DNA from: Astropecten irregularis
Lineage: Eukaryota; Echinodermata; Asteroidea; Paxillosida; Astropectinidae
Reading direction: 5' to 3'
DNA length: 64,000 nt
Assembly (NCBI GenBank): GCA_963971285.1
Contig: OZ020248.1
Coordinates: forward strand, 2,790,001 to 2,854,000
The notes under the pieces were generated by a model. It did no database searches. It had not been told where the DNA came from and saw nothing but the letters and a program-made list of their open reading frames with translations. The position numbers were made by a program, and so were the translations under genes. Below, in pieces: positions 1-64,000 of the stretch (within the stretch, counting starts at the first letter, position 1; every line of letters begins with the position of its first letter).

Positions 1-1013
1 AGAGTAGGGAAAGCTAAAAATGTATTTCCAAACACTGTTAAGGGCCAATCACGTTTATTCCAATTCCAGGCTATTCCAACACCAGCAGGGTTGTAATGTT
101 TCTGGGTTAATCAGGAAAGTTAAACTTTCTCTTATGTTTCCTCCTCAATATATTTTAAATAAGAGAGTTGTGAGAGCTATGGAAATGAAGGATTGAAGAA
201 ATATGGCACTGGACCTCCTGCCTGGACTCTGGGCTTCCATTTATGAGCAGTGTGATGCAATTGGGTGAGAAAAGTGGGTCTATTTCAGCCGCTTTTCCCT
301 CTTCAAATTTGCAGAGGGATGTTTTTTTAATGGCTTCTTTGACTGGAGTGATCCATATACCTTGTTTTAAGGGGTGGTCAGCTGAGAATGAGTATATCTC
401 AAAAATTCAAAGGTCAACCCACCATAAAATGAAAAGAAAATGAAAGGTAACATATGTTTCATCATCATTTTCTTTTGTGCAACTGAACAGCTGCGCGCAG
501 GACACCAAATCACCAAGCTACCCCCCCCCCCCCAAAAAAAAATCATGAAAAGAAATGGACACCCATGTCTATGGGAGTTTATTTACTTGAATGCAACCAT
601 AACGCGGGCGATCGGCGAGCCTCGGCATCGCCGTCCATACGCCGACCAAGTCGAAGGCCCGAACTCGTACGCCGACCGACTCGTACGCCAACCAACTCGT
701 ACGACGACCAACTCGTACGCCACCAGCACATTAAGATTGTACGTAGTTTGTATTAACAAAATAAACAAGCACTGAGTGTGCCGTGCTCGTCCACGTCGGT
801 GGGGGGCAAACCTAATTTGAATATAATCTTGATATAATAATTTCTCACACTACAACGTGCACTGTGTTCATCAGTCTAATTAATTAGCTTCGCTCTGTTG
901 AGCTGACAAATTTATGTCAAAAGCAGGGGAATTATATCCTATGGTTACCGAAAAAGTACAATACACACTGGCATAAGAACAGCTTAAAACGACGTCACAT
1001 TCATAAGCCAATC
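1..1013 (+). repeat. Satellite monomer 1
   Basis: 1,013 bp, tract C13/A9, M1=A, M2=T. Private G-to-A at 449, and one T of the usual 'caacttgaac' is missing near 484, so this copy is one base shorter than the rule predicts. The window cuts in at the chosen phase point. Confidence 0.97.
991..997 (+). promoter_or_regulatory. CRE-like GACGTCA, one per monomer junction
   Basis: Half-palindromic cyclic-AMP-response-element core (full consensus TGACGTCA) with a C in place of the first T. It lies 11 bp upstream of a CCAAT box. Present at essentially every junction; broken in unit 12 (12133) and unit 59 (59573) and deleted at the 44/45 junction. Whether anything binds it is inference from the motif alone. 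Confidence 0.4.
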
Positions 1014-1015
1014 AG
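1006..1015 (+). promoter_or_regulatory. CCAAT box 1 (NF-Y-like, AGCCAATCAG)
   Basis: Matches the full NF-Y consensus RRCCAATCRS, not just the pentamer. I see it intact at 62 of the 63 junctions, missing only at the 44/45 deletion. It is 50 bp from the second CCAAT box. Paired CCAAT boxes beside a CRE are common in animal Pol II promoters; function here is inferred. Confidence 0.5.
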
Positions 1016-1055
1016 AGTAGGGAAAGCTAAAAATGTATTTCCAAACACTGTTAAG

Positions 1056-1065
1056 GGCCAATCAC
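1056..1065 (+). promoter_or_regulatory. CCAAT box 2 (NF-Y-like, GGCCAATCAC)
   Basis: Second CCAAT box with good NF-Y flanks, in the same orientation as box 1. Found unchanged in all 64 copies that cover it, including the truncated unit 45 and the mutated stretch of unit 48. Confidence 0.5.
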
Positions 1066-1127
1066 GTTTATTCCAATTCCAGGCTATTCCAACACCAGCA
1101 GGGTTGTAATGTTTCTGGGTTAATCAG

Positions 1128-1142
1128 GAAAGTTAAACTTTC
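1128..1142. repeat. 15-bp dyad GAAAGTT-A-AACTTTC
   Basis: Seven-base arms are perfect inverted repeats around one central base. The site recurs in every monomer; in unit 9 the centre is T instead of A. It could be a protein dyad site; no factor is recognised. Confidence 0.6.
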
Positions 1143-1161
1143 TCTTATGTTTCCTCCTCAA

Positions 1162-1176
1162 TATATTTTAAATAAG
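1162..1176 (+). promoter_or_regulatory. TATA-like block TATATTTTAAATAAG
   Basis: AT block about 100 bp downstream of CCAAT box 2 and about 95 bp upstream of the recurrent 66-codon ORF. With the CRE and CCAAT boxes it gives the order of a Pol II core promoter; a start near 1192-1196 would be expected. No transcript evidence is available. Confidence 0.3.
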
Positions 1177-1255
1177 AGAGTTGTGAGAGCTATGGAAATG
1201 AAGGATTGAAGAAATATGGCACTGGACCTCCTGCCTGGACTCTGGGCTTCCATTT

Positions 1256-1456
1256 ATGAGCAGTGTGATGCAATTGGGTGAGAAAAGTGGGTCTATTTCA
1301 GCCGCTTTTCCCTCTTCAAATTTGCAGAGGGATGTTTTTTTAATGGCTTCTTTGACTGGAGTGATCCATATACCTTGTTTTAAGGGGTGGTCAGCTGAGA
1401 ATGAGTATATCTCAAAAATTCAAAGGTCAACCCACCATAAAATGAAAAGAAAATGA
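1256..1456 (+). other. Recurrent 66-codon ORF, probably not coding
   Basis: An ATG-to-stop frame (N-terminus MSSVMQLGEKSG) is present in every full monomer. No domain, signal peptide or family is recognised. Across copies I count about 5 distinct synonymous changes against about 13 amino-acid changes (for example codon 39 Ile to Leu or Met, codon 27 Val to Asp or Ile, codons 24-25 Gln-Arg to Arg-Met). That is near neutral expectation. No frameshift has arisen, but very few indels exist outside the tract anyway. The antisense strand of the same region is also open for about 71 codons without an ATG. I treat it as chance openness copied by the satellite. Confidence 0.2.
1278..1327 (+). other. 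Intron-like 50-nt segment (GGTGAG ... TTTGCAG)
   Basis: A good 5' splice-site match (G|GTGAGA) is followed 50 bases later by a pyrimidine-rich stretch and TTTGCAG|AGG. The length would be very small for an intron. The acceptor AG is destroyed (GCGG) in units 58, 60, 63 and 64. Purely a motif observation; splicing would need RNA evidence. Confidence 0.15.
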
Positions 1457-1485
1457 AAGGTGACATATGTTTCATCATCATTTTC
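1449..1485. repeat. 37-nt hairpin-forming inverted repeat
   Basis: GAAAATGA at 1449-1456 is the exact reverse complement of TCATTTTC at 1478-1485, and the nested ATGAAA / TTTCAT can pair in an alternative register with an 11-nt loop. Present in every monomer, immediately after the 66-codon ORF. Confidence 0.6.
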
Positions 1486-1504
1486 TTTTGTGCAACTTGA
1501 ACAG

Positions 1505-1514
1505 CTGCGCGCAG
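1505..1514. repeat. 10-bp perfect palindrome CTGCGCGCAG
   Basis: Perfect self-complementary site overlapping an E-box-type CAGCTG, carrying three CpG-rich steps in otherwise AT-rich surroundings. Unchanged in all copies examined. Confidence 0.6.
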
Positions 1515-1534
1515 GACACCAAATCACCAAGCTA

Positions 1535-1553
1535 CCCCCCCCCCAAAAAAAAA
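1535..1553 (+). repeat. Hypervariable poly-C/poly-A tract
   Basis: C10/A9 here. Over the window the C run ranges from 6 (unit 57) to 16 (units 24, 48, 52) and the A run from 6 (units 21, 58) to about 15 (unit 44). Interrupted in units 17, 35, 38 and 63. It explains nearly all monomer length variation and shifts the reading frame of any ORF crossing it. Some of the variation could be homopolymer sequencing error. Confidence 0.95.
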
Positions 1554-1611
1554 TCATGAAAAGAAATGGACACCCATGTCTATGGGAGTTTATTTACTTG
1601 AATGCAACCAT

Positions 1612-1737
1612 AACGCGGGCGATCGGCGAGCCTCGGCATCGCCGTCCATACGCCGACCAAGTCGAAGGCCCGAACTCGTACGCCGACCGACTCGTACGCC
1701 AACCAACTCGTACGACGACCAACTCGTACGCCACCAG
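1612..1737. other. CpG-dense core of the monomer
   Basis: I count about 23 CpG in about 126 bases, whereas the flanking 800 bases are AT-rich. It contains CGATCG, a dyad GGCGAT (1618-1623) / ATCGCC (1638-1643) with a 14-nt loop, and the 16-bp repeats. CpG decay is rare among copies (one clear C-to-T, 62336), which suggests low germline methylation or very recent spread. Confidence 0.7.
1674..1737 (+). repeat. 16-bp minisatellite, four copies (ACTCGTACGCCRACCR-like)
   Basis: Copies begin at 1674, 1690, 1706 and 1722. Each contains the palindrome CGTACG and differs from the others at 1-4 bases. The four-copy structure is itself fixed across all monomers; only units 61 and 62 alter it, by the same GC insertion in the last copy. 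Confidence 0.9.
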
Positions 1738-1770
1738 CACATTAAGATTGTACGTAGTTTGTATTAACAA

Positions 1771-1776
1771 AATAAA
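1771..1776 (+). terminator. AATAAA polyadenylation-signal motif
   Basis: Canonical hexamer followed within about 10-45 bases by G/T-rich sequence (GAGTGTGCCGTG, then GGTGGGGGG), the usual arrangement of an animal Pol II 3' end. Same strand as the CCAAT/TATA motifs and about 600 bases downstream of the TATA-like block. Seen in every monomer. The hexamer alone is common by chance in AT-rich DNA. Confidence 0.3.
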
Positions 1777-1886
1777 CAAGCACTGAGTGTGCCGTGCTCG
1801 TCCACGTCGGTGGGGGGCAAACCTAATTTGAATATAATCTTGATATAATAATTTCTCACACTACAACGTGCACTGTGTTCATCAGT

Positions 1887-1898
1887 CTAATTAATTAG
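1887..1898. promoter_or_regulatory. 12-bp palindrome CTAATTAATTAG (paired-type homeodomain P2-like site)
   Basis: Contains TAAT-TA-ATTA, the spacing known as P2 for dimers of paired-class homeodomains. Contracted by one 4-bp unit in units 26 and 27 (still palindromic), broken by single changes in units 41 and 56, deleted at the 44/45 junction. Binding is inference only. Confidence 0.4.
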
Positions 1899-2024
1899 CT
1901 TCGCTCTGTTGAGCTGACAAATTTATGTCAAAAGCAGGGGAATTATATCCTATGGTTACCGAAAAAGTACAATACACACTGGCATAAGAACAGCTTAAAA
2001 CGACGTCACATTCATAAGCCAATC

Positions 2025-3039
2025 AGAGTAGGGAAAGCTAAAAATGTATTTCCAAACACTGTTAAGGGCCAATCACGTTTATTCCAATTCCAGGCTATTC
2101 CAACACCAGCAGGGTTGTAATGTTTCTGGGTTAATCAGGAAAGTTAAACTTTCTCTTATGTTTCCTCCTCAATATATTTTAAATAAGAGAGTTGTGAGAG
2201 CTATGGAAATGAAGGATTGAAGAAATATGGCACTGGACCTCCTGCCTGGACTCTGGGCTTCCATTTATGAGCAGTGTGATGCAATTGGGTGAGAAAAGTG
2301 GGTCTATTTCAGCCGCTTTTCCCTCTTCAAATTTGCAGAGGGATGTTTTTTTAATGGCTTCTTTGACTGGAGTGATCCATATACCTTGTTTTAAGGGGTG
2401 GTCAGCTGAGAATGAGTATATCTCAAAAATTCAAAGGTCAACCCACCATAAAATGAAAAGAAAATGAAAGGTGACATATGTTTCATCATCATTTTCTTTT
2501 GTGCAACTTGAACAGCTGCGCGCAGGACACCAAATCACCAAGCTACCCCCCCCCCCCCCAAAAAAAAATCATGAAAAGAAATGGACACCCGTGTCTATGG
2601 GAGTTTATTTACTTGAATGCAACCATAACGCGGGCGATCGGCGAGCCTCGGCATCGCCGTCCATACGCCGACCAAGTCGAAGGCCCGAACTCGTACGCCG
2701 ACCGACTCGTACGCCAACCAACTCGTACGACGACCAACTCGTACGCCACCAGCACATTAAGATTGTACGTAGTTTGTATTAACAAAATAAACAAGCACTG
2801 AGTGTGCCGTGCTCGTCCACGTCGGTGGGGGGCAAACCTAATTTGAATATAATCTTGATATAATAATTTCTCACACTACAACGTGCACTGTGTTCATCAG
2901 TCTAATTAATTAGCTTCGCTCTGTTGAGCTGACAAATTTATGTCAAAAGCAGGGGAATTATATCCTATGGTTACCGAAAAAGTACAATACACACTGGCAT
3001 AAGAACAGCTTAAAACGACGTCACATTCATAAGCCAATC
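2025..3039 (+). repeat. Satellite monomer 3
   Basis: 1,015 bp, tract C14/A9, M1=A, M2=T. Private A-to-G at 2591, just after the tract. Confidence 0.97.
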
Positions 3040-31396: not shown

Positions 31397-32412
31397 AGAG
31401 TAGGGAAAGCTAAAAATGTATTTCCAAACACTGTTAAGGGCCAATCACGTTTATTCCAATTCCAGGCTATTCCAACACCAGCAGGGTTGTAATGTTTCTG
31501 GGTTAATCAGGAAAGTTAAACTTTCTCTTATGTTTCCTCCTCAATATATTTTAAATAAGAGAGTTGTGAGAGCTATGGAAATGAAGGATTGAAGAAATAT
31601 GGCACTGGACCTCCTGCCTGGACTCTGGGCTTCCATTTATGAGCAGTGTGATGCAATTGGGTGAGAAAAGTGGGTCTATTTCAGCCGCTTTTCCCTCTTC
31701 AAATTTGCAGAGGGATGTTTTTTTAATGGCTTCTTTGACTGGAGTGATCCATATACCTTGTTTTAAGGGGTGGTCAGCTGAGAATGAGTATATCTCAAAA
31801 ATTCAAAGGTCAACCCACCATAAAATGAAAAGAAAATGAAAGGTGACATATGTTTCATCATCATTTTCTTTTGTGCAACTTGAACAGCTGCGCGCAGGAC
31901 ACCAAATCACCAAGCTACCCCCCCCCCCCAAAAAAAAAAAATCATGAAAAGAAATGGACACCCATGTCTATGGGAGTTTATTTACTTGAATGCAACCATA
32001 ACGCGGGCGATCGGCGAGCCTCGGCATCGCCGTCCATACGCCGACCAAGTCGTAGGCCCGAACTCGTACGCCGACCGACTCGTACGCCAACCAACTCGTA
32101 CGACGACCAACTCGTACGCCACCAGCACATTAAGATTGTACGTAGTTTGTATTAACAAAATAAACAAGCACTGAGTGTGCCGTGCTCGTCCACGTCGGTG
32201 GGGGGCAAACCTAATTTGAATATAATCTTGATATAATAATTTCTCACACTACAACGTGCACTGTGTTCATCAGTCTAATTAATTAGCTTCGCTCTGTTGA
32301 GCTGACAAATTCATGTCAAAAGCAGGGGAATTATATCCTATGGTTACCGAAAAAGTACAATACACACTGGCATAAGAACAGCTTAAAACGACGTCACATT
32401 CATAAGCCAATC
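31397..32412 (+). repeat. Satellite monomer 32
   Basis: 1,016 bp, tract C12/A12. No private change noticed. Confidence 0.97.
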
Positions 32413-33424
32413 AGAGTAGGGAAAGCTAAAAATGTATTTCCAAACACTGTTAAGGGCCAATCACGTTTATTCCAATTCCAGGCTATTCCAACACCAGCAG
32501 GGTTGTAATGTTTCTGGGTTAATCAGGAAAGTTAAACTTTCTCTTATGTTTCCTCCTCAATATATTTTAAATAAGAGAGTTGTGAGAGCTATGGAAATAA
32601 AGGATTGAAGAAATATGGCACTGGACCTCCTGCCTGGACTCTGGGCTTCCATTTATGAGCAGTGTGATGCAATTGGGTGAGAAAAGTGGGTCTATTTCAG
32701 CCGCTTTTCCCTCTTCAAATTTGCAGAGGGATGTTTTTTTAATGGCTTCTTTGACTGGAGTGATCCATATGCCTTGTTTTAAGGGGTGGTCAGCTGAGAA
32801 TGAGTATATCTCAAAAATTCAAAGGTCAACCCACCATAAAATGAAAAGAAAATGAAAGGTGACATATGTTTCATCATCATTTTCTTTTGTGCAACTTGAA
32901 CAGCTGCGCGCAGGACACCAAATCACCAAGCTACCCCCCCCCCCAAAAAAAAATCATGAAAAGAAATGGACACCCATGTCTATGGGAGTTTATTTACTTG
33001 AATGCAACCATAACGCGGGCGATCGGCGAGCCTCGGCATCGCCGTCCATACGCCGACCAAGTCGTAGGCCCGAACTCGTACGCCGACCGACTCGTACGCC
33101 AACCAACTCGTACGACGACCAACTCGTACGCCACCAGTACATTAAGATTGTACGTAGTTTGTATTAACAAAATAAACAAGCACTGAGTGTGCCGTGCTCG
33201 TCCACGTCGGTGGGGGGCAAACCTAATTTGAATATAATCTTGATATAATAATTTCTCACACTACAACGTGCACTGTGTTCATCAGTCTAATTAATTAGCT
33301 TCGCTCTGTTGAACTGACAAATTCATGTCAAAAGCAGGGGAATTATATCCTATGGTTACCGAAAAAGTACAATACACACTGGCATAAGAACAGCTTAAAA
33401 CGACGTCACATTCATAAGCCAATC
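32413..33424 (+). repeat. Satellite monomer 33
   Basis: 1,012 bp, tract C11/A9. A-to-G at 32771 and C-to-T at 33138 mark the trimer class shared with units 36, 39, 41 and 42. Private G-to-A at 32599 and 33313. Confidence 0.97.
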
Positions 33425-34438
33425 AGAGTAGGGAAAGCTAAAAATGTATTTCCAAACACTGTTAAGGGCCAATCACGTTTATTCCAATTCCAGGCTATTC
33501 CAACACCAGCAGGGTTGTAATGTTTCTGGGTTAATAAGGAAAGTTAAACTTTCTCTTATGTTTCCTCCTCAATATATTTTAAATAAGAGAGTTGTGAGAG
33601 CTATGGAAATGAAGGATTGAAGAAATATGGCACTGGACCTCCTGCCTGGACTCTGGGCTTCCATTTATGAGAAGTGTGATGCAATTGGGTGAGAAAAGTG
33701 GGTCTATTTCAGCCGCTTTTCCCTCTTCAAATTTGCAGAGGGATGTTTTTTTAATGGCTTCTTTGACTGGAGTGATCCATATACCTTGTTTTAAGGGGTG
33801 GTCAGCTGAGAATGAGTATATCTCAAAAATTCAAAGGTCAACCCACCATAAAATGAAAAGAAAATGAAAGGTGACATATGTTTCATCATCATTTTCTTTT
33901 GTGCAACTTGAACAGCTGCGCGCAGGACACCAAATCACCAAGCTACCCCCCCCCCCAAAAAAAAAAATCATGAAAAGAAATGGACACCCATGTCTATGGG
34001 AGTTTATTTACTTGAATGCAACCATAACGCGGGCGATCGGCGAGCCTCGGCATCGCCGTCCATACGCCGACCAAGTCGTAGGCCCGAACTCGTACGCCGA
34101 CCGACTCGTACGCCAACCAACTCGTACGACGACCAACTCGTACGCCACCAGCACATTAAGATTGTACGTAGTTTGTATTAACAAAATAAACAAGCACTGA
34201 GTGTGCCGTGCTCGTCCACGTCGGTGGGGGGCAAACCTAATTTGAATATAATCTTGATATAATAATTTCTCACACTACAACGTGCACTGTGTTCATCAGT
34301 CTAATTAATTAGCTTCGCTCTGTTGAGCAGACAAATTCATGTCAAAAGCAGTGGAATTATATCCTATGGTTACCGAAAAAGTACAATACACACTGGCATA
34401 AGAACAGCTTAAAACGACGTCATATTCATAAGCCAATC
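33425..34438 (+). repeat. Satellite monomer 34
   Basis: 1,014 bp, tract C11/A11. C-to-A at 33536 recurs in units 37, 40 and 43. Tail set 34329/34352/34423 is shared with unit 31. Private C-to-A at 33672. Confidence 0.97.
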
Positions 34439-35454
34439 AGAGTAGGGAAAGCTAAAAATGTATTTCCAAACACTGTTAAGGGCCAATCACGTTTATTCCA
34501 ATTCCAGGCTATTCCAACACCAGCAGGGTTGTAATGTTTCTGGGTTAATCAGGAAAGTTAAACTTTCTCTTATGTTTCCTCCTCAATATATTTTAAATAA
34601 GAGATTTGTGAGAGCTATGGAAATGAAGGATTGAAGAAATATGGCACTGGACCTCCTGCCTGGACTCTGGGCTTCCATTTATGAGCAGTGTGATGCAATT
34701 GGGTGAGAAAAGTGGGTCTATTTCAGCCGCTTTTCCCTCTTCAAATTTGCAGAGGGATGTTTTTTTAATGGCTTCTTTGACTGGAGTGATCCATATACCT
34801 TGTTTTAAGGGGTGGTCAGCTGAGAATGAGTATATCTCAAAAATTCAAAGGTCAACCCACCATAAAATGAAAAGAAAATGAAAGGTGACATATGTTTCAT
34901 CATCATTTTCTTTTGTGCAACTTGAACAGCTGCGCGCAGGACACCAAATCACCAAGCTACCCCCCCCCCCAAAAAAAGAAAAATCATGAAAAGAAATGGA
35001 CACCCATGTCTATGGGAGTTTATTTACTTGAATGCAACCATAACGCGGGCGATCGGCGAGCCTCGGCATCGCCGTCCATACGCCGACCAAGTCGTAGGCC
35101 CGAACTCGTACGCCGACCGACTCGTACGCCAACCAACTCGTACGACGACCAACTCGTACGCCACCAGCACATTAAGATTGTACGTAGTTTGTATTAACAA
35201 AATAAACAAGCACTGAGTGTGCCGTGCTCGTCCACGTCGGTGGGGGGCAAACCTAATTTGAATATAATCTTGATATAATAATTTCTCACACTACAACGTG
35301 CACTGTGTTCATCAGTCTAATTAATTAGCTTCGCTCTGTTGAGCTGACAAATTCATGTCAAAAGCAGGGGAATTATATCCTATGGTTACCGAAAAAGTAC
35401 AATACACACTGGCATAAGAACAGCTTAAAACGACGTCACATTCATAAGCCAATC
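34439..35454 (+). repeat. Satellite monomer 35
   Basis: 1,016 bp. The tract is C11 then A7-G-A5 (G at 34978). Private G-to-T at 34605. Confidence 0.97.
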
Positions 35455-36470
35455 AGAGTAGGGAAAGCTAAAAATGTATTTCCAAACACTGTTAAGGGCC
35501 AATCACGTTTATTCCAATTCCAGGCTATTCCAACACCAGCAGGGTTGTAATGTTTCTGGGTTAATCAGGAAAGTTAAACTTTCTCTTATGTTTCCTCCTC
35601 AATATATTTTAAATAAGAGAGTTGTGAGAGCTATGGAAATGAAGGATTGAAGAAATATGGCACTGGACCTCCTGCCTGGACTCTGGGCTTCCATTTATGA
35701 GCAGTGTGATGCAATTGGGTGAGAAAAGTGGGTCTATTTCAGCCGCTTTTCCCTCTTCAAATTTGCAGAGGGATGTTTTTTTAATGGCTTCTTTGACTGG
35801 AGTGATCCATATGCCTTGTTTTAAGGGGTGGTCAGCTGAGAATGAGTATATCTCAAAAATTCAAAGGTCAACCCACCATAAAATGAAAAGAAAATGAAAG
35901 GTGACATATGTTTCATCATCATTTTCTTTTGTGCAACTTGAACAGCTGCGCGCAGGACACCAAATCACCAAGCTACCCCCCCCCCCCCCCAAAAAAAAAT
36001 CATGAAAAGAAATGGACACCCATGTCTATGGGAGTTTATTTACTTGAATGCAACCATAACGCGGGCGATCGGCGAGCCTCGGCATCGCCGTCCATACGCC
36101 GACCAAGTCGTAGGCCCGAACTCGTACGCCGACCGACTCGTACGCCAACCAACTCGTACGACGACCAACTCGTACGCCACCAGTACATTAAGATTGTACG
36201 TAGTTTGTATTAACAAAATAAACAAGCACTGAGTGTGCCGTGCTCGTCCACGTCGGTGGGGGGCAAACCTAATTTGAATATAATCTTGATATAATAATTT
36301 CTCACACTACAACGTGCACTGTGTTCATCAGTCTAATTAATTAGCTTCGCTCTGTTGAGCTGACAAATTCATGTCAAAAGCAGGGGAATTATATCCTATG
36401 GTTACCGAAAAAGTACAATACACACTGGCATAAGAACAGCTTAAAACGACGTCACATTCATAAGCCAATC
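35455..36470 (+). repeat. Satellite monomer 36
   Basis: 1,016 bp, tract C15/A9. Trimer-class markers G at 35813 and T at 36184. Confidence 0.97.
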
Positions 36471-37485
36471 AGAGTAGGGAAAGCTAAAAATGTATTTCCA
36501 AACACTGTTAAGGGCCAATCACGTTTATTCCAATTCCAGGCTATTCCAACACCAGCAGGGTTGTAATGTTTCTGGGTTAATAAGGAAAGTTAAACTTTCT
36601 CTTATGTTTCCTCCTCAATATATTTTAAATAAGAGAGTTGTGAGAGCTATGGAAATGAAGGATTGAAGAAATATGGCACTGGACCTCCTGCCTGGACTCT
36701 GGGCTTCCATTTATGAGCAGTGTGATGCAATTGGGTGAGAAAAGTGGGTCTATTTCAGCCGCTTTTCCCTCTTCAAATTTGCAGAGGGATGTTTTTTTAA
36801 TGGCTTCTTTGACTGGAGTGATCCATATACCTTGTTTTAAGGGGTGGTCAGCTGTGAATGAGTATATCTCAAAAATTCAAAGGTCAACCCACCATAAAAT
36901 GAAAAGAAAATGAAAGGTGACATATGTTTCATCATCATTTTCTTTTGTGCAACTTGAACAGCTGCGCGCAGGACACCAAATCACCAAGCTACCCCCCCCC
37001 CCAAAAAAAAAAAATCATGAAAAGAAATGGACACCCATGTCTATGGGAGTTTATTTACTTGAATGCAACCATAACGCGGGCGATCGGCGAGCCTCGGCAT
37101 CGCCGTCCATACGCCGACCAAGTCGTAGGCCCGAACTCGTACGCCGACCGACTCGTACGCCAACCAACTCGTACGACGACCAACTCGTACGCCACCAGCA
37201 CATTAAGATTGTACGTAGTTTGTATTAACAAAATAAACAAGCACTGAGTGTGCCGTGCTCGTCCACGTCGGTGGGGGGCAAACCTAATTTGAATATAATC
37301 TTGATATAATAATTTCTCACACTACAACGTGCACTGTGTTCATCAGTCTAATTAATTAGCTTCGCTCTGTTGAGCTGACAAATTCATGTCAAAAGCAGGG
37401 GAATTATATCCTATGGTTACCGAAAAAGTACAATACACACTGGCATAAGAACAGCTTAAAACGACGTCACATTCATAAGCCAATC
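36471..37485 (+). repeat. Satellite monomer 37
   Basis: 1,015 bp, tract C11/A12. Trimer-class A at 36582. Private A-to-T at 36855. Confidence 0.97.
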
Positions 37486-38499
37486 AGAGTAGGGAAAGCT
37501 AAAAATGTATTTCCAAACACTGTTAAGGGCCAATCACGTTTATTCCAATTCCAGGCTATTCCAACACCAGCAGGGTTGTAATTTTTCTGGGTTAATCAGG
37601 AAAGTTAAACTTTCTCTTATGTTTCCTCCTCAATATATTTTAAATAAGAGAGTTGTGAGAGCTATGGAAATGAAGGATTGAAGAAATATGGCACTGGACC
37701 TCCTGCCTGGACTCTGGGCTTCCATTTATGAGCAGTGTGATGCAATTGGGTGAGAAAAGTGGGTCTATTTCAGCCGCTTTTCCCTCTTCAAATTTGCAGA
37801 GGGATGTTTTTTTAATGGCTTCTTTGACTGGAGTGATCCATATACCTTGTTTTAAGGGGTGGTCAGCTGAGAATGAGTATATCTCAAAAATTCAAAGGTC
37901 AACCCACCATAAAATGAAAAGAAAATGAAAGGTGACATATGTTTCATCATCATTTTCTTTTGTGCAACTTGAACAGCTGCGCGCAGGACACCAAATCACC
38001 AAGCTACCCACCCCCCCCCAAAAAAAAATCATGAAAAGAAATGGACACCCATGTCTATGGGAGTTTATTTACTTGAATGCAACCATAACGCGGGCGATCG
38101 GCGAGCCTCGGCATCGCCGTCCATACGCCGACCAAGTCGTAGGCCCGAACTCGTACGCCGACCGACTCGTACGCCAACCAACTCGTACGACGACCAACTC
38201 GTACGCCACCAGCACATTAAGATTGTACGTAGTTTGTATTAACAAAATAAACAAGCACTGAGTGTGCCGTGCTCGTCCACGTCGGTGGGGGGCAAACCTA
38301 ATTTGAATATAATCTTGATATAATAATTTCTCACACTACAACGTGCACTGTGTTCATCAGTCTAATTAATTAGCTTCGCTCTGTTGAGCTGACAAATTCA
38401 TGTCAAAAGCAGGGGAATTATATCCTATGGTTACCGAAAAAGTACAATACACACTGGCATAAGAACAGCTTAAAACGACGTCACATTCATAAGCCAATC
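37486..38499 (+). repeat. Satellite monomer 38
   Basis: 1,014 bp. The tract is C3-A-C9 then A9 (interruption at 38010). Private G-to-T at 37583. Confidence 0.97.
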
Positions 38500-39515
38500 A
38501 GAGTAGGGAAAGCTAAAAATGTATTTCCAAACACTGTTAAGGGCCAATCACGTTTATTCCAATTCCAGGCTATTCCAACACCAGCAGGGTTGTAATGTTT
38601 CTGGGTTAATCAGGAAAGTTAAACTTTCTCTTATGTTTCCTCCTCAATATATTTTAAATAAGAGAGTTGTGAGAGCTATGGAAATGAAGGATTGAAGAAA
38701 TATGGCACTGGACCTCCTGCCTGGACTCTGGGCTTCCATTTATGAGCAGTGTGATGCAATTGGGTGAGAAAAGTGGGTCTATTTCAGCCGCTTTTCCCTC
38801 TTCAAATTTGCAGAGGGATGTTTTTTTAATGGCTTCTTTGACTGGAGTGATCCATATGCCTTGTTTTAAGGGGTGGTCAGCTGAGAATGAGTATATCTCA
38901 AAAATTCAAAGGTCAACCCATCATAAAATGAAAAGAAAATGAAAGGTGACATATGTTTCATCATCATTTTCTTTTGTGCAACTTGAACAGCTGCGCGCAG
39001 GACACCAAATCACCAAGCTACCCCCCCCCCCCCAAAAAAAAAAATCATGAAAAGAAATGGACACCCATGTCTATGGGAGTTTATTTACTTGAATGCAACC
39101 ATAACGCGGGCGATCGGCGAGCCTCGGCATCGCCGTCCATACGCCGACCAAGTCGTAGGCCCGAACTCGTACGCCGACCGACTCGTACGCCAACCAACTC
39201 GTACGACGACCAACTCGTACGCCACCAGTACATTAAGATTGTACGTAGTTTGTATTAACAAAATAAACAAGCACTGAGTGTGCCGTGCTCGTCCACGTCG
39301 GTGGGGGGCAAACCTAATTTGAATATAATCTTGATATAATAATTTCTCACACTACAACGTGCACTGTGTTCATCAGTCTAATTAATTAGCTTCGCTCTGT
39401 TGAGCTGACAAATTCATGTCAAAAGCAGGGGAATTATATCCTATGGTTACCGAAAAAGTACAATACACACTGGCATAAGAACAGCTTAAAACGACGTCAC
39501 ATTCATAAGCCAATC
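38500..39515 (+). repeat. Satellite monomer 39
   Basis: 1,016 bp, tract C13/A11. Trimer-class G at 38858 and T at 39229. Private C-to-T at 38921. Confidence 0.97.
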
Positions 39516-40529
39516 AGAGTAGGGAAAGCTAAAAATGTATTTCCAAACACTGTTAAGGGCCAATCACGTTTATTCCAATTCCAGGCTATTCCAACACCAG
39601 CAGGGTTGTAATGTTTCTGGGTTAATAAGGAAAGTTAAACTTTCTCTTATGTTTCCTCCTCAATATATTTTAAATAAGAGAGTTGTGAGAGCTATGGAAA
39701 TGAAGGATTGAAGAAATATGGCACTGGACCTCCTGCCTGGACTCTGGGCTTCCATTTATGAGCAGTGTGATGCAATTGGGTGAGAAAAGTGGGTCTATTT
39801 CAGCCGCTTTTCCCTCTTCAAATTTGCAGAGGGATGTTTTTTTAATGGCTTCTTTGACTGGAGTGATCCATATACCTTGTTTTAAGGGGTGGTCAGCTGA
39901 GAATGAGTATATCTCAAAAATTCAAAGGTCAACCCACCATAAAATGAAAAGAAAATGAAAGGTGACATATGTTTCATCATCATTTTCTTTTGTGCAACTT
40001 GAACAGCTGCGCGCAGGACACCAAATCACCAAGCTACCCCCCCCCCCCCAAAAAAAAATCATGAAAAGAAATGGACACCCATGTCTATGGGAGTTTATTT
40101 ACTTGAATGCAACCATAACGCGGGCGATCGGCGAGCCTCGGCATCGCCGTCCATACGCCGACCAAGTCGTAGGCCCGAACTCGTACGCCGACCGACTCGT
40201 ACGCCAACCAACTCGTACGACGACCAACTCGTACGCCACCAGCACATTAAGATTGTACGTAGTTTGTATTAACAAAATAAACAAGCACTGAGTGTGCCGT
40301 GCTCGTCCACGTCGGTGGGGGGCAAACCTAATTTGAATATAATCTTGATATAATAATTTCTCACACTACAACGTGCACTGTGTTCATCAGTCTAATTAAT
40401 TAGCTTCGCTCTGTTGAGCTGACAAATTCATGTCAAAAGCAGGGGAATTATATCCTATGGTTACCGAAAAAGTACAATACACACTGGCATAAGAACAGCT
40501 TAAAACGACGTCACATTCATAAGCCAATC
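39516..40529 (+). repeat. Satellite monomer 40
   Basis: 1,014 bp, tract C13/A9. Trimer-class A at 39627. Confidence 0.97.
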
Positions 40530-41543
40530 AGAGTAGGGAAAGCTAAAAATGTATTTCCAAACACTGTTAAGGGCCAATCACGTTTATTCCAATTCCAGGC
40601 TATTCCAACACCAGCAGGGTTGTAATGTTTCTGGGTTAATCAGGAAAGTTAAACTTTCTCTTATGTTTCCTCCTCAATATATTTTAAATAAGAGAGTTGT
40701 GAGAGCTATGGAAATGAAGGATTGAAGAAATATGGCACTGGACCTCCTGCCTGGACTCTGGGCTTCCATTTATGAGCAGTGTGATGCAATTGGGTGAGAA
40801 AAGTGGGTCTATTTCAGCCGCTTTTCCCTCTTCAAATTTGCAGAGGGATGTTTTTTTAATGGCTTCTTTGACTGGAGTGATCCATATGCCTTGTTTTAAG
40901 GGGTGGTCAGCTGAGAATGAGTATATCTCAAAAATTCAAAGGTCAACCCACCATAAAATGAAAAGAAAATGAAAGGTGACATATGTTTCATCATCATTTT
41001 CTTTTGTGCAACTTGAACAGCTGCGCGCAGGACACCAAATCACCAAGCTACCCCCCCCCCCCCAAAAAAAAATCATGAAAAGAAATGGACACCCATGTCT
41101 ATGGGAGTTTATTTACTTGAATGCAACCATAACGCGGGCGATCGGCGAGCCTCGGCATCGCCGTCCATACGCCGACCAAGTCGTAGGCCCGAACTCGTAC
41201 GCCGACCGACTCGTACGCCAACCAACTCGTACGACGACCAACTCGTACGCCACCAGTACATTAAGATTGTACGTAGTTTGTATTAACAAAATAAACAAGC
41301 ACTGAGTGTGCCGTGCTCGTCCACGTCGGTGGGGGGCAAACCTAATTTGAATATAATCTTGATATAATAATTTCTCACACTACAACGTGCACTGTGTTCA
41401 TCAGTCTAATAAATTAGCTTCGCTCTGTTGAGCTGACAAATTCATGTCAAAAGCAGGGGAATTATATCCTATGGTTACCGAAAAAGTACAATACACACTG
41501 GCATAAGAACAGCTTAAAACGACGTCACATTCATAAGCCAATC
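40530..41543 (+). repeat. Satellite monomer 41
   Basis: 1,014 bp, tract C13/A9. Carries G at 40888 and T at 41257 of the 33/36/39/42 class although it is one unit out of the three-unit phase. Private T-to-A at 41411 breaks the 12-bp palindrome. Confidence 0.97.
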
Positions 41544-42558
41544 AGAGTAGGGAAAGCTAAAAATGTATTTCCAAACACTGTTAAGGGCCAATCACGTTTA
41601 TTCCAATTCCAGGCTATTCCAACACCAGCAGGGTTGTAATGTTTCTGGGTTAATCAGGAAAGTTAAACTTTCTCTTATGTTTCCTCCTCAATATATTTTA
41701 AATAAGAGAGTTGTGAGAGCTATGGAAATGAAGGATTGAAGAAATATGGCACTGGACCTCCTGCCTGGACTCTGGGCTTCCATTTATGAGCAGTGTGATG
41801 CAATTGGGTGAGAAAAGTGGGTCTATTTCAGCCGCTTTTCCCTCTTCAAATTTGCAGAGGGATGTTTTTTTAATGGCTTCTTTGACTGGAGTGATCCATA
41901 TGCCTTGTTTTAAGGGGTGGTCAGCTGAGAATGAGTATATCTCAAAAATTCAAAGGTCAACCCACCATAAAATGAAAAGAAAATGAAAGGTGACATATGT
42001 TTCATCATCATTTTCTTTTGTGCAACTTGAACAGCTGCGCGCAGGACACCAAATCACCAAGCTACCCCCCCCCCCCCCAAAAAAAAATCATGAAAAGAAA
42101 TGGACACCCATGTCTATGGGAGTTTATTTACTTGAATGCAACCATAACGCGGGCGATCGGCGAGCCTCGGCATCGCCGTCCATACGCCGACCAAGTCGTA
42201 GGCCCGAACTCGTACGCCGACCGACTCGTACGCCAACCAACTCGTACGACGACCAACTCGTACGCCACCAGTACATTAAGATTGTACGTAGTTTGTATTA
42301 ACAAAATAAACAAGCACTGAGTGTGCCGTGCTCGTCCACGTCGGTGGGGGGCAAACCTAATTTGAATATAATCTTGATATAATAATTTCTCACACTACAA
42401 CGTGCACTGTGTTCATCAGTCTAATTAATTAGCTTCGCTCTGTTGAGCTGACAAATTCATGTCAAAAGCAGGGGAATTATATCCTATGGTTACCGAAAAA
42501 GTACAATACACACTGGCATAAGAACAGCTTAAAACGACGTCACATTCATAAGCCAATC
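41544..42558 (+). repeat. Satellite monomer 42
   Basis: 1,015 bp, tract C14/A9. Trimer-class G at 41902 and T at 42272. Confidence 0.97.
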
Positions 42559-43571
42559 AGAGTAGGGAAAGCTAAAATTGTATTTCCAAACACTGTTAAG
42601 GGCCAATCACGTTTATTCCAATTCCAGGCTATTCCAACACCAGCAGGGTTGTAATGTTTCTGGGTTAATAAGGAAAGTTAAACTTTCTCTTATGTTTCCT
42701 CCTCAATATATTTTAAATAAGAGAGTTGTGAGAGCTATGGAAATGAAGGATTGAAGAAATATGGCACTGGACCTCCTGCCTGGACTCTGGGCTTCCATTT
42801 ATGAGCAGTGTGATGCAATTGGGTGAGAAAAGTGGGTCTATTTCAGCCGCTTTTCCCTCTTCAAATTTGCAGAGGGATGTTTTTTTAATGGCTTCTTTGA
42901 CTAGAGTGATCCATATACCTTGTTTTAAGGGGTGGTCAGCTGAGAATGAGTATATCTCAAAAATTCAAAGGTCAACCCACCATAAAATGAAAAGAAAATG
43001 AAAGGTGACATATGTTTCATCATCATTTTCTTTTGTGCAACTTGAACAGCTGCGCGCAGGACACCAAATCACCAAGCTACCCCCCCCCCCAAAAAAAAAA
43101 TCATGAAAAGAAATGGACACCCATGTCTATGGGAGTTTATTAACTTGAATGCAACCATAACGCGGGCGATCGGCGAGCCTCGGCATCGCCGTCCATACGC
43201 CGACCAAGTCGTAGGCCCGAACTCGTACGCCGACCGACTCGTACGCCAACCAACTCGTACGACGACCAACTCGTACGCCACCAGCACATTAAGATTGTAC
43301 GTAGTTTGTATTAACAAAATAAACAAGCACTGAGTGTGCCGTGCTCGTCCACGTCGGTGGGGGGCAAACCTAATTTGAATATAATCTTGATATAATAATT
43401 TCTCACACTACAACGTGCACTGTGTTCATCAGTCTAATTAATTAGCTTCGCTCTGTTGAGCTGACAAATTCATGTCAAAAGCAGGGGAATTATATCCTAT
43501 GGTTACCGAAAAAGTACAATACACACTGGCATAAGAACAGCTTAAAACGACGTCACATTCATAAGCCAATC
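42559..43571 (+). repeat. Satellite monomer 43
   Basis: 1,013 bp, tract C11/A10. Trimer-class A at 42670. Private A-to-T at 42579, G-to-A at 42903 and T-to-A at 43142. Confidence 0.97.
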
Positions 43572-44431
43572 AGAGTAGGGAAAGCTAAAAATGTATTTCC
43601 AAACACTGTTAAGGGCCAATCACGTTTATTCCAATTCCAGGCTATTCCAACACCAGCAGGGTTGTAATGTTTCTGGGTTAATCAGGAAAGTTAAACTTTC
43701 TCTTATGTTTCCTCCTCAATATATTTTAAATAAGAGAGTTGTGAGAGCTATGGAAATGAAGGATTGAAGAAATATGGCACTGGACCTCCTGCCTGGACTC
43801 TGGGCTTCCATTTATGAGCAGTGTGATGCAATTGGGTGAGAAAAGTGGGTCTATTTCAGCCGCTTTTCCCTCTTCAAATTTGCAGAGGGATGTTTTTTTA
43901 ATGGCTTCTTTGACTGGAGTGATCCATATACCTTGTTTTAAGGGGTGGTCAGCTGAGAATGAGTATATCTCAAAAATTCAAAGGTCAACCCACCATAAAA
44001 TGAAAAGAAAATGAAAGGTGACATATGTTTCATCATCATTTTCTTTTGTGCAACTTGAACAGCTGCGCGCAGGACACCAAATCACCAAGCTACCCCCCCC
44101 CCAAAAAAAAAAAAAAACATGAAAAGAAATGGACACCCATGTCTATGGGAGTTTATTTACTTGAATGCAACCATAACGCGGGCGATCGGCGAGCCTCGGC
44201 ATCGCCGTCCATACGCCGACCAAGTCGTAGGCCCGAACTCGTACGCCGACCGACTCGTACGCCAACCAACTCGTACGACGACCAACTCGTACGCCACCAG
44301 CACATTAAGATTGTACGTAGTTTGTATTAACAAAATAAACAAGCACTGAGTGTGCCGTGCTCGTCCACGTCGGTGGGGGGCAAACCTAATTTGAATATAA
44401 TCTTGATATAATAATTTCTCACACTACAACG
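43572..44431 (+). repeat. Satellite monomer 44, 3'-truncated at deletion junction
   Basis: 860 bp. It ends at 'acaacg' (44431) where standard copies continue 'tgcactg'. The tract is C10 then 15 As, because the usual T before 'catg' is also A. The lost tail includes the 12-bp palindrome, GACGTCA and the first CCAAT box. Confidence 0.97.
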
Positions 44432-44432
44432 G
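44431..44432. other. 197-bp deletion junction between units 44 and 45
   Basis: 'actacaacg' is joined directly to 'gggccaatc'. In unit 1/2 terms, bases 858-1054 are missing. The flanking bases (T after the left side, A before the right side) show no shared microhomology at the join, so it looks like simple end joining rather than repeat-mediated loss. Confidence 0.95.
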
Positions 44433-45401
44433 GGCCAATCACGTTTATTCCAATTCCAGGCTATTCCAACACCAGCAGGGTTGTAATGTTTCTGGGTTAA
44501 TCAGGAAAGTTAAACTTTCTCTTATGTTTCCTCCTCAATATATTTTAAATAAGAGAGTTGTGAGAGCTATGGAAATGAAGGATTGAAGAAATATGGCACT
44601 GGACCTCCTGCCTGGACTCTGGGCTTCCATTTATGAGCAGTGTGATGCAATTGGGTGAGAAAAGTGGGTCTATTTCAGCCGCTTTTCCCTCTTCAAATTT
44701 GCAGAGGGATGTTTTTTTAATGGCTTCTTCGACTGGAGTGATCCATATACCTTGTTTTAAGGGGTGGTCAGCTGAGAATGAGTATATCTCAAAAATTCAA
44801 AGGTCAACCCACCATAAAATGAAAAGAAAATGAAAGGTGACATATGTTTCATCATCATTTTCTTTTGTGCAACTTGAACAGCTGCGCGCAGGACACCAAA
44901 TCACCAAGCTACCCCCCCCCCCAAAAAAAATCATGAAAAGAAATGGACACCCATGTCTATGGGAGTTTATTTACTTGAATGCAACCATAACGCGGGCGAT
45001 CGGCGAGCCACGGCATCGCCGTCCATACGCCGACCAAGTCGTAGGCCCGAACTCGTACGCCGACCGACTCGTACGCCAACCAACTCGTACGACGACCAAC
45101 TCGTACGCCACCAGCACATTAAGATTGTACGTAGTTTGTATTAACAAAATAAACAAGCACTGAGTGTGCCGTGCTCGTCCACGTCGGTGGGGGGCAAACC
45201 TAATTTGAATATAATCTTGATATAATAATTTCTCACACTACAACGTGCACTGTGTTCATCAGTCTAATTAATTAGCTTCGCTCTGTTGAGCTGACAAATT
45301 CATGTCAAAAGCAGGGGAATTATATCCTATGGTTACCGAAAAAGTACAATACACACTGGCATAAGAACAGCTTAAAACGACGTCACATTCATAAGCCAAT
45401 C
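44432..45401 (+). repeat. Satellite monomer 45, 5'-truncated at deletion junction
   Basis: 970 bp. It begins at 'gggccaatc', missing the first 41 bases of the monomer, but keeps the second CCAAT box. Tract C11/A8. T-to-C at 44730 is shared with unit 57. Private T-to-A at 45010. Confidence 0.97.
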
Positions 45402-60606: not shown

Positions 60607-61615
60607 AGAGTAGGGAAAGCTAAAAATGTATTTCCAAACACTGTTAAGGGCCAATCACGTTTATTCCAATTCCAGGCTATTCCAACACCAGCAGGGTTGT
60701 AATGTTTCTGGGTTAATCAGGAAAGTTAAACTTTCTCTTATGTTTCCTCCTCAATATATTTTAAATAACATAGTTGTCAGAGTATGGAAATGAAGGATTG
60801 AAGAAATATGGCACTGGACCTCCTGCCTGGACTCTGGGCTTCCATTTATGAGCAGTGTGATGCAATTGGGTGAGAAAAGTGGGTCTATTTCAGCCGCTTT
60901 TCCCTCTTCAAATTTGCAGAGGGATGTTTTTGTAATGGCTTCTTTGACTGGAGTGATTCATATACCTTGTTTTAAGGGGTGGTCAGCTGAGAATGAGTAT
61001 ATCTCAAAAATTCAAAGGTCAACCCACCATAAAATGAAAAGAAAATGAAAGGTGACATATGTTTCATCATCATTTTCTTTTGTGCAACTTGAACAGCTGC
61101 GCGCAGGACACCAAATCACCAAGCTACCCCCCCCAAAAAAAATCATGAAAAGAAATGGACACCCATGTCTATGGGAGTTTATTTACTTGAATGCAACCAT
61201 AACGCGGGCGATCGGCGAGCCTCGGCATCGCCGTCCATACGCCGACCAAGTCGTAGGCCCGAACTCGTACGCCGACCGACTCGTACGCCAACCAACTCGT
61301 ACGACGACCAACTCGTACGCGCCACCAGCACATTAAGATTGTACGTAGTTTGTACTAACAAAATAAACAAGCACTGAGTGTGCCGTGCTCGTCCACGTCG
61401 GTGGGGGGCAAACCTAATTTGAATATAATCTTGATATAATAATTTCTCACACTACAACGTGCACTGTGTTCATCAGTCTAATTAATTAGCTTCGCTCTGT
61501 TGAGCTGACAAATTCATGTCAAAAGCAGGGGAATTATATCCTATGGTTACCGAAAAAGTACAATACACACTGGCATAAGAACAGCTTAAAACGACGTCAC
61601 ATTCATAAGCCAATC
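60607..61615 (+). repeat. Satellite monomer 61 (divergent)
   Basis: 1,009 bp, tract C8/A8. Cluster at 60769-60783 (G-to-C, G-to-T, G-to-C and loss of one C), T-to-G 60932, C-to-T 60958, a 2-bp GC insertion near 61320 in the last 16-bp repeat, and T-to-C 61354 as in unit 57. Confidence 0.97.
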
Positions 61616-62633
61616 AGAGTAGGGAAAGCTAAAAATGTATTTCCAAACACTGTTAAGGGCCAATCACGTTTATTCCAATTCCAGGCTATTCCAACACCAG
61701 CAGGGTTGTAATGTTTCTGGGTTAATCAGGAAAGTTAAACTTTCTCTTATGTTTCCTCCTCAATATATTTTAAATAAGAGAGTTGTGAGAGCTATGGAAA
61801 TGAAGGATTGAAGAAAATATGGCACTGGACCTCCTGCCTGGACTCTGGGCTTCCATTTATGAGCAGTGTGATGCAATTGGGTGAGAAAAGTGGGTCTATT
61901 TCAGCCGCTTTTCCCTCTTCAAATTTGCAGAGGGATATTTTTTTAATGGCTTCTTTGACTGGAGTGATCCATATACCTTGTTTTAAGGGGTGGTCAGCTG
62001 AGAATGAGTATATCTCAAAAATTCAAAGGTCAACCCACCATAAAATGAAAAGAAAATGAAAGGTGACATATGTTTCATCATCATTTTCTTTTGTGCAACT
62101 TGAACAGCTGCGCGCAGGACACCAAATCACCAAGCTACCCCCCCCCCCAAAAAAAAAAAATCATGAAAAGAAATGGACACCCATGTCTATGGGAGTTTAT
62201 TTACTTGAATGCAACCATAACGCGGGCGATCGGCGAGCCTCGGCATCGCCGTCCATACGCCGACCAAGTCGTAGGCCCGAACTCGTACGCCGACCTACTC
62301 GTACGCCAACCAACTCGTACGACGACCAACTCGTATGCGCCACCAGCACATTAAGATTGTACGTAGTTTGTATTAACAAAATAAACAAGCACTGAGTGTG
62401 CCGTGCTCGTCCACGTCGGTGGGGGGCAAACCTAATTTGAATATAATCTTGATATAATAATTTCTCACACTACAACGTGCACTGTGTTCATCAGTCTAAT
62501 TAATTAGCTTCGCTCTGTTGAGCTGACAAATTCATGTCAAAAGCAGGGGAATTATATCCTATGGTTACCGAAAAAGTACAATACACACTGGCATAAGAAC
62601 AGCTTAAAACGACGTCACATTCATAAGCCAATC
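61616..62633 (+). repeat. Satellite monomer 62 (divergent)
   Basis: 1,018 bp, tract C11/A12. One extra A near 61814, G-to-A 61937, G-to-T 62296, C-to-T 62336, and the same GC insertion as unit 61 near 62338. Confidence 0.97.
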
Positions 62634-63645
62634 AGAGTAGGGAAAGCTAAAAATGTATTTCCAAACACTGTTAAGGGCCAATCACGTTTATTCCAATTCC
62701 AGGCTATTCCAACACCAGCAGGGTTGTAATGTTTCTGGGTTAATCAGGAAAGTTAAACTTTCTCTTATGTTTCCTCCTCAATATATTTTAAATAAGAGAG
62801 TTGTGAGAGCTATGGAAATGAAGGATTGAAGAAATATGGCACTGGACCTCCTGCCTGGACTCTGGGCTTCCATTTATGAGCAGTGTGATGCAATTGGGTG
62901 AGAAAAGTGGGTCTATTTCAGCCGCTTTTCCCTCTTCAAATTTGCGGATGGATGTTTTTTTAATGGCTTCTTTGACTGGAGTGATCCATATACCTTGTTT
63001 TAAGGGGTGGTCAGCTGAGAATGAGTATATCTCAAAAATTCAAAGGTCAACCCACCATAAAATGAAAAGAAAATGAAAGGTGACATATGTTTCATCATCA
63101 TTTTCTTTTGTGCAACTTGAACAGCTGCGCGCAGGACACCAAATCACCAAGCTACCCCTCCCCCAAAAAAAAATCATGAAAAGAAATGGACACCCATGTC
63201 TATGGGAGTTTATTTACTTGAATGCAACCATAACGCGGGCCATCGGCGAGCCTCGGCATCGCCGTCCATACGCCGACCAAGTCGTAGGCCCGAACTCGTA
63301 CGCCGACCGACTCGTACGCCAACCAACTCGTACGACGACCAACTCGTACGCCACCAGCACATTAAGATTGTACGTAGTTTGTATTAACAAAATAAACAAG
63401 CACTGAGTGTGCCGTGCTCGTCCACGTCGGTGGGGGGGCAAACCTAATTTGAATATAATCTTGATATAATAATTTCTCACACTACAACGTGCACTGTGTT
63501 CATCAGTCTAATTAATTAGCTTCGCTCTGTTGAGCTGACAAATTCATGTCAAAAGCAGGGGAATTATATCCTATGGTTACCGAAAAAGTACAATACACAC
63601 TGGCATAAGAACAGCTTAAAACGACGTCACATTCATAAGCCAATC
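62634..63645 (+). repeat. Satellite monomer 63 (divergent)
   Basis: 1,012 bp. The tract is C4-T-C5 then A9 (T at 63159), with a G7 run. GCGGATGG pair at 62946/62949. G-to-C at 63241 breaks CGATCG. Confidence 0.97.
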
Positions 63646-64000
63646 AGAGTAGGGAAAGCTAAAAATGTATTTCCAAACACTGTTAAGGGCCAATCACGTT
63701 TATTCCAATTCCAGGCTATTCCAACACCAGCAGGGTTGTAATGTTTCTGGGTTAATCAGGAAAGTTAAACTTTCTCTTATGTTTCCTCCTCAATATATTT
63801 TAAATAAGAGAGTTGTGAGAGCTATGGAAATGAAGGATTGAAGAAATATGGCACTGGACCTCCTGCCTGGACTCTGGGCTTCCATTTATGAGCAGTGTGA
63901 TGCAATTGGGTGAGAGAAGTGGGTCTATTTCAGCCGCTTTTCCCTCTTCAAATTTGCGGATGGATGTTTTTTTAATGGCTTCTTTGACTGGAGTGATCCA
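63646..64000 (+). repeat. Satellite monomer 64, cut by window end
   Basis: First 355 bases only. GCGGATGG pair at 63958/63961, private A-to-G at 63916. The array continues past the window. Confidence 0.97.

What the first reader, a model, noticed from the sequence alone, without database searches (positions are those of the whole stretch)
1..64000. A more than 64-kb, unbroken, highly homogeneous 1-kb satellite array
Every base belongs to one monomer family in one orientation, with neither end reached. A 1,013-bp unit is long for a satellite, and identity above 99% over 63 copies indicates recent or ongoing homogenisation. I recognise no named satellite family in it.
Basis: seen in the sequence. 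Interest (0 to 1): 0.7.

Follow-up and report, generated by a model that had tools for sequence, protein, structure and literature searches.

The report
Young mobile-element-like satellite array between genes
The window lies inside one run of about 127 nearly identical 1-kb repeats on a sand-star chromosome, which appears to have grown locally from one copy of a scattered mobile-element-like repeat next to two duplicate enzyme genes; it is a well-resolved case of an ordinary kind of young satellite DNA.

Summary
All 64 kb is one head-to-tail family: 61 full units of 1,006-1,018 bp, mean pairwise identity 99.6%, one unit with a deletion. Both ends lie outside the window: the array is about 128.8 kb with 127 unit starts and no N. 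It sits between two DCXR-like (L-xylulose reductase) paralogs, 136 bp before the start codon of one and about 620 bp after the last recognisable exon of the other. Diverged relatives occur at seven listed places on five other chromosomes. Two measured relatives carry about 360 bp that the window's unit lacks, so the unit looks like a deletion derivative. Three arrays share a left-end box whose 16-bp motif recurs inverted inside relatives' units, recalling a Helentron-type element. Neighbouring units share variants, so growth was mostly local. No coding, RNA or constraint signal was found in what was tested. Genome-wide copy number was not obtained: the search service stopped answering.

The parts
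1..64000 (+). Interior of the tandem array (C11:2790001-2854000 of an array spanning about C11:2766793-2895589)
494..1507 (+). First complete unit when phased at the deletion junction
480..500 (+). Deletion junction (493/494); two measured relatives carry about 360 bp here
521..542 (+). Poly-C/poly-A tract; over the whole array the C-run is 5-17 and the A-run 6-14 as matched by the script
578..600 (+). Degenerate copy of the inverted partner (TATTTACTTGGGTGCA in relatives) of the array's left-end box; only 10 bases still match here
638..725 (+). 16-bp minisatellite (TACGCCGACCAACTCG) inside a CpG-rich part of the unit; reported at about 1-kb spacing along the window
991..1012 (+). CRE-like GACGTCAC followed by a CCAAT box; kept in most of six relatives, but no 40-bp window of the unit is more conserved than chance
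31900..44100 (+). Stretch with three-unit periodicity of shared variants (approximate limits, whole-array units about 54-65)
44066..44884 (+). Unit of 819 bp, lacking consensus positions about 365-561

Best explanation
A young satellite array derived from a dispersed non-autonomous mobile element. A repeat with mobile-element-like ends, already prone to head-to-tail repetition, landed between two tandem DCXR-like genes on chromosome 5. One unit lost about 360 bp, and this shortened 1,013-bp form then spread by repeated short-range unequal exchange (or gene conversion between near neighbours) into about 127 copies. Shown: array size, homogeneity, local sharing of variants, length difference from relatives, shared left box, gene flanks. 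Inferred: that the shorter form is the derived one, that the founding element moved by a Helentron-like rolling-circle route, and that unequal exchange did the amplification. Most likely it has no selected function; any effect on the neighbouring genes is incidental.
For: Whole array: 125 full units plus one of 819 bp, mean pairwise identity 99.54%, no N. Adjacent units differ at 3.23 positions against 4.59 when unit order is shuffled, 0 of 500 shuffles as low; of 24 variants held by exactly two units, 23 pairs lie within 9 units and one at 23, where a mean of 42 is expected if random. Units 50-69 show a three-unit period. At unit position 161 the left third of the array has A and the rest T; the three relatives with data there (C30a, C30b, C12) have T. 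At 420 the left third has T and the rest C; five relatives have C, the two C15 copies A, none T. Relatives: 34 matches at seven places on five other chromosomes, long pieces 85-93% identical. Periods: 1,385 bp in the C30b relative, 1,269 bp in the C12 array, which lacks a different segment. The left-end box is shared by the C11, C12 and C30b arrays with sequence upstream that does not align. The C11 box motif TGCACCCAAGTAAATA has an exact inverted copy in C12 and C30b sequence (E about 1e-4), and the C12 array stops just after it. The box holds a 10-bp palindrome in 2 of 3 arrays.
Against: Matched with its own units the box does less well: 12 bases in C12 (E 0.03), 14 of 15 in C30b (E 0.11), 10 in C11 (E 0.47). 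Right ends differ between loci. No target-site duplication was recognisable by eye. No Rep/helicase partner was looked for. The hairpin after the inverted repeat is perfect only in C15b of five unit sequences tested; equally strong hairpins lie in the minisatellite of three of them; 1.6% of shuffled pieces hold one. Some fully identical units lie up to 26 units apart, so growth was not strictly neighbour to neighbour. Read depth was not available, so the copy number rests on the assembly.
Confidence: 0.68

Rival explanations
1. A classical satellite family present in long arrays on many chromosomes (pericentromeric or subterminal), of which this is one block.
For: Length, homogeneity and noncoding nature fit. 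The DNA search skips very common words and did not list the window's own array, so other such arrays could have been missed.
Against: The array adjoins genes on both sides. The 34 listed matches on five other chromosomes are all diverged (83-96% per piece). Sampled probes elsewhere on chromosome 5 held no unit.
Confidence: 0.2
2. A tandem gene array: each unit a promoter plus a noncoding transcript (CRE and CCAAT boxes, AATAAA downstream), kept homogeneous by selection.
For: CRE-like GACGTCAC is kept in 5 of 6 relatives, the first CCAAT box in 6 of 6, the second in 5 of 6, AATAAA in 5 of 5 with data.
Against: No 40-bp window of the unit is more conserved among relatives than chance (P = 0.39). 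No Rfam family reaches its threshold. Folding z-scores -0.8 and -1.6 for two + strand halves. No tRNA in 3.0 kb. No Pfam family passes its cut-off in 7 ORFs. The C/A tract puts units in all three frames.
Confidence: 0.06
3. An assembly artefact: a few real units expanded or misjoined.
For: Mean read length is about 9.9 kb (22.66 Gb from 2.30 million reads), shorter than the array, and units are 99.5% alike.
Against: HiFi reads with hifiasm, QV 56.8. Units carry distinct variants and tract lengths, the five groups of fully identical units are scattered rather than block-repeated, and both ends join gene-bearing sequence.
Confidence: 0.06

Closest known systems
Tetris and TIR-220 satellite of Drosophila virilis (PMC4079207; abstract, outline and one section read)
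   Same: A non-autonomous DNA element supplies repeats that amplify into homogeneous satellite arrays (up to 66 copies there).
   Different: There the repeat is about 220 bp inside the terminal repeats, and amplification was tied to beta-heterochromatin. Here the unit is 1 kb, contains the inverted-repeat partner, and lies beside genes.
Helitron-associated satellites of oysters (PMC8268682, passages; PMC11136912, abstract and outline)
   Same: Long monomers in some families, scattered short arrays, arrays with an element box on one side only.
   Different: The longest standalone array of the commonest family there is 232 monomers, about 40 kb with an assembly gap. This one is about 129 kb of a 1-kb unit, and its Helitron origin is not proven.
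Non-autonomous Helentrons, DINE-1/HINE (PMC4067079, passages)
   Same: Short subterminal inverted repeats, palindromic in some families; tandem repeats in some copies; DINE-1-like elements reported from sea urchin.
   Different: 3' stem-loop inconclusive here, TT insertion not clear, Rep/helicase partner not tested.
Macrosatellites such as DXZ4 (search listing and abstract starts only)
   Same: A homogeneous tandem array of large units; the single-locus comparison is from recall.
   Different: No evidence of CTCF binding, transcription or chromatin role was available here.

Membership tests
Satellite DNA | Long head-to-tail array of a noncoding unit | tested here: met
Satellite DNA | Homogenised within the array (concerted evolution) | tested here: met
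   99.54% pairwise, local sharing of variants
Satellite DNA | High abundance in the genome | not tested
   Junction search did not complete; skips common words
Satellite DNA (classical) | Location in constitutive heterochromatin | tested here: inconclusive
   Flanked by DCXR-like genes; no chromatin data
Macrosatellite | Unit of about 1 kb or more, tens to hundreds of copies at one locus | tested here: inconclusive
   Unit and copy number met; single-locus status not tested
Helentron / HINE | Palindromic 5' subterminal inverted repeat with an inverted partner near the 3' end | tested here: inconclusive
   GGGTGCACCC in 2 of 3 left boxes (GAGTGCACC in the third); exact 16-bp inverted copy of the C11 box in C12 and C30b sequence, weaker when each box is matched to its own units; the 3' end of the element is not defined
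Helentron / HINE | Short stem-loop just before the 3' end | tested here: inconclusive
   7-bp stem at the expected place only in C15b of five unit sequences tested; similar hairpins elsewhere in the unit; 1.6% of shuffles
Helentron / HINE | Insertion between two T | tested here: inconclusive
   A T lies 2-4 bases before the box in 3 of 3 left ends by eye; 3' end not defined
Helentron / HINE | Autonomous Rep/helicase partner with the same ends | not tested
   Never asked: the genome search gave no answer
Cut-and-paste transposon with terminal inverted repeats | Target-site duplication | tested here: not met
   None recognised by eye at the C12 array, the only one with both candidate ends
Structured RNA gene array | Match to a known RNA family or unusual folding | tested here: not met
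   (folding of the + strand only)

The most novel reading that the evidence does not exclude
A Helentron-type element was copied by rolling-circle read-through into a one-box, head-to-tail array, which then replaced the promoter region of one DCXR gene and the last exon of its upstream neighbour. The birth of a satellite would thereby have rewired a metabolic gene pair, with the array's CRE/CCAAT-bearing units now serving as tandem promoters.
Probability: 0.06. Interest if true: 0.65.

Novelty: new member of a known kind. Interest (0 to 1): 0.3.

Why it matters
It is an assembled satellite array without N, with both ends, diverged relatives that show a longer form, and a record of mostly local growth in its variants. 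That makes the step from dispersed mobile repeat to satellite readable in an echinoderm, a phylum for which two searches of the paper library returned little on satellite DNA. It also shows such an array abutting a gene start.

Tried and rejected
Structured RNA or tRNA arrays: no Rfam match at threshold in 3.1 kb (five matches below threshold), no tRNA in 3.0 kb, unremarkable folding of two 500-base + strand pieces. Coding unit: 7 of the 30 ORFs listed were scanned and none passes a Pfam cut-off (DUF2737 at E = 0.092 is below it); tract lengths put the units in all three frames. Selective constraint on promoter-like motifs: not above chance among six relatives. Link to a neighbouring palindromic MITE: it lies near 6 of 7 relatives but also in 8 of 15 chromosome-5 probes away from the array, so I took it as merely common; the difference was not tested. 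Dating: abandoned, because the passages seen of a paper on a starfish mutation rate gave no rate (PMC10861045). Genome-wide count of the deletion junction: requested, never answered. A COX1 search for species identification did not complete either; identification rests on six chromosome lengths in PMC11480709. A check after the first attempt to file corrected the statement on site 420: both C15 copies, not one, have A. The Helentron inverted-repeat row was lowered from met to inconclusive on rereading, and the confidence in the best explanation from 0.70 to 0.68 for the same reason.
Full report
What is there. The window is one tandem array on one strand. 63 anchors give 62 intervals, 61 of them 1,006-1,018 bp and one of 1,830 bp. 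The odd interval holds a unit of 819 bp starting at 44,066 that lacks about 195 bp. The 61 full units are 99.64% identical on average outside a poly-C/poly-A tract. Tandem Repeats Finder, whose longest period here is 500, reports only the 16- or 32-bp minisatellite nested in the units.

Where it is. The window is C11:2790001-2854000 of a 475.7-Mb eukaryote genome in 168 contigs. Six contig lengths (27.22, 22.69, 21.66, 18.43, 14.56 and 12.08 Mb; [quoted passage not shown] The paper gives 475,837,774 bp in 186 scaffolds and the held copy 475,729,200 bp in 168 contigs, so the identification rests on these lengths.

The ends. Sampled probes showed array sequence on both sides of the window and none further out on chromosome 5. 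The borders were then read: left at about C11:2,766,793, right at about C11:2,895,589, some 128.8 kb. The 129.4-kb stretch holding it has no N, 127 unit starts, 125 full units and one of 819 bp, mean pairwise identity 99.54%, minimum 98.5%. The right border lies 136 bp before an ATG opening a gene whose exons read as L-xylulose reductase (DCXR); one exon matches the solved L-xylulose reductase 1pr9 at 2.8e-13. Left of the array are four exons of a second copy, 72-87% identical, in the same orientation. Its last exon is not recognisable in the roughly 620 bp before the array. The array therefore sits where that copy's last intron or 3' end would be.

Relatives. A search of the genome with one unit listed 34 matches at seven places on C12, C15, C21, C27 and C30 (two of the eight loci returned overlap). 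The tool skips very common words and did not list the window's own array, so identical arrays elsewhere are not excluded. Long pieces are 85-93% identical by BLAST; on aligned letters alone the copies are 92-94%. The C30b relative has a unit period of 1,385 bp, with about 360 bp between unit positions 493 and 494 that the window's unit lacks; C27 has a link of similar length. In C12 and C15 I saw the link by eye, but my script's end marker was not found there. C12 is a short array with a 1,269-bp period that lacks a different segment; two partial comparisons within L007 give 94-95% and one with L043 gives 97%. So the two other arrays seen carry their own unit forms, as expected when homogenisation is local.

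Mobile-element-like ends. The C11, C12 and C30b arrays share a left box of about 60 bp, joined to the unit at position 144, with sequence upstream that does not align. It begins GGGTGCACCC in two of them and GAGTGCACC in the third. The 16 bases TGCACCCAAGTAAATA of the C11 box recur inverted in C12 and C30b sequence (E about 1e-4) and with one mismatch in C30a. Matched to its own units each box does less well: 12 bases in C12 (E 0.03), 14 of 15 in C30b (E 0.11), 10 bases in C11's consensus unit (E 0.47). The C12 array ends just past the inverted copy. Passages on non-autonomous Helentrons describe 12-15-bp subterminal inverted repeats, palindromic in some families, a 3' stem-loop, TT insertion and tandem repeats in some copies (PMC4067079). 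The first feature fits in outline; the stem-loop and TT features are inconclusive, the former because the hairpin is perfect in only one of five unit sequences and similar hairpins lie in the minisatellite. An autonomous partner was not searched for. I therefore call it Helentron-like, not a Helentron. Right ends differ among loci and I saw no target-site duplication.

How it grew. Adjacent units differ at 3.23 positions against 4.59 in shuffled order, 0 of 500 shuffles as low, and the same holds at lags 2 to 5. Of 24 variants carried by exactly two units, 23 pairs lie within 9 units and one at 23. Units 50-69 are most alike at lags 3 and 6 among lags 1-7. Against strictly neighbour-to-neighbour growth, five groups of fully identical units include members up to 26 units apart. 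The right tenth of the array is the most divergent, 4.67 substitutions per unit against a mean of 2.51. At unit position 161 the left third has A and the rest T, and all three relatives with data have T; at 420 the left third has T and the rest C, and five relatives have C, the two C15 copies A. This suggests the left third is derived. The pattern is that of repeated short-range unequal exchange; gene conversion between near neighbours would look similar.

What it does. Nothing here points to a selected function. The unit has CRE-like and CCAAT motifs and an AATAAA, kept in most of six relatives compared, but no 40-bp window is more conserved than chance (P = 0.39). Those six include C30a and C30b, which share flanks and may be local duplicates. 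Seven of 30 listed ORFs were scanned without a Pfam match at cut-off, Rfam gives nothing at threshold, and folding z-scores are -0.83 and -1.64 for the + strand. At the C12 array a start codon, read by eye as that of a methyltransferase-like protein, lies about 200 bp beyond the right end in the same orientation. The support is weak: the protein-structure search gave the uncharacterised 2pxx at E = 0.01 behind an unrelated agglutinin at 0.0032, and the methyltransferase name is from recall. Two arrays ending near gene starts hint at insertion near promoters, but I did not examine the other five places for genes in a systematic way.

Comparison. Satellite arrays built from mobile elements are known: Tetris in Drosophila virilis (PMC4079207, abstract and one section) and Helitron-linked satellites in oysters, with monomers up to 3,287 bp and a longest standalone array of the commonest family of about 40 kb with a gap (PMC8268682, passages). 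This case is of the same kind, longer than that array and read to both ends. A search for starfish, echinoderm and satellite DNA returned two papers, each with one mention of satellite DNA, and one for Astropecten and satellite DNA returned none; broader listings showed no starfish satellite paper among the rows listed. The library lacks most subscription journals.

Limits. No read depth, no Dfam or RepBase, no genome-wide count: the whole-genome search answered once and then reported itself busy at every later request up.

Noticed in passing
C11:2763601-2766600 (L050, L033) and C11:2895726 onward (L045, L048, L049); outside the window: Two tandem DCXR-like genes flank the array; the upstream copy has no recognisable last exon before it.
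   Followed up: partly
L007 (C12) right flank: A start codon of a possibly methyltransferase-like gene lies about 200 bp beyond the C12 array, same orientation; weak structure-library match only.
   Followed up: partly
L001, L003, L005, L006, L008, L043 and chromosome-5 probes L013, L014, L016, L017, L020, L022, L023, L027: A common element of about 363 bp with 24-bp terminal inverted repeats and a 26-bp central palindrome, near 6 of 7 relatives and in 8 of 15 chromosome-5 probes.
   Followed up: partly
L002 (C21) left flank: A different short element with inverted ends (TTTAAAGGCATTGCATACGTTTGG) appears inserted in the left part of this relative; seen by eye only.
   Followed up: no
C30 near 9.49 and 9.50 Mb; C15 near 9.18 and 9.19 Mb: Two relatives on each chromosome lie about 10 kb apart with flanks that look shared by eye, as after local duplication.
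   Followed up: no
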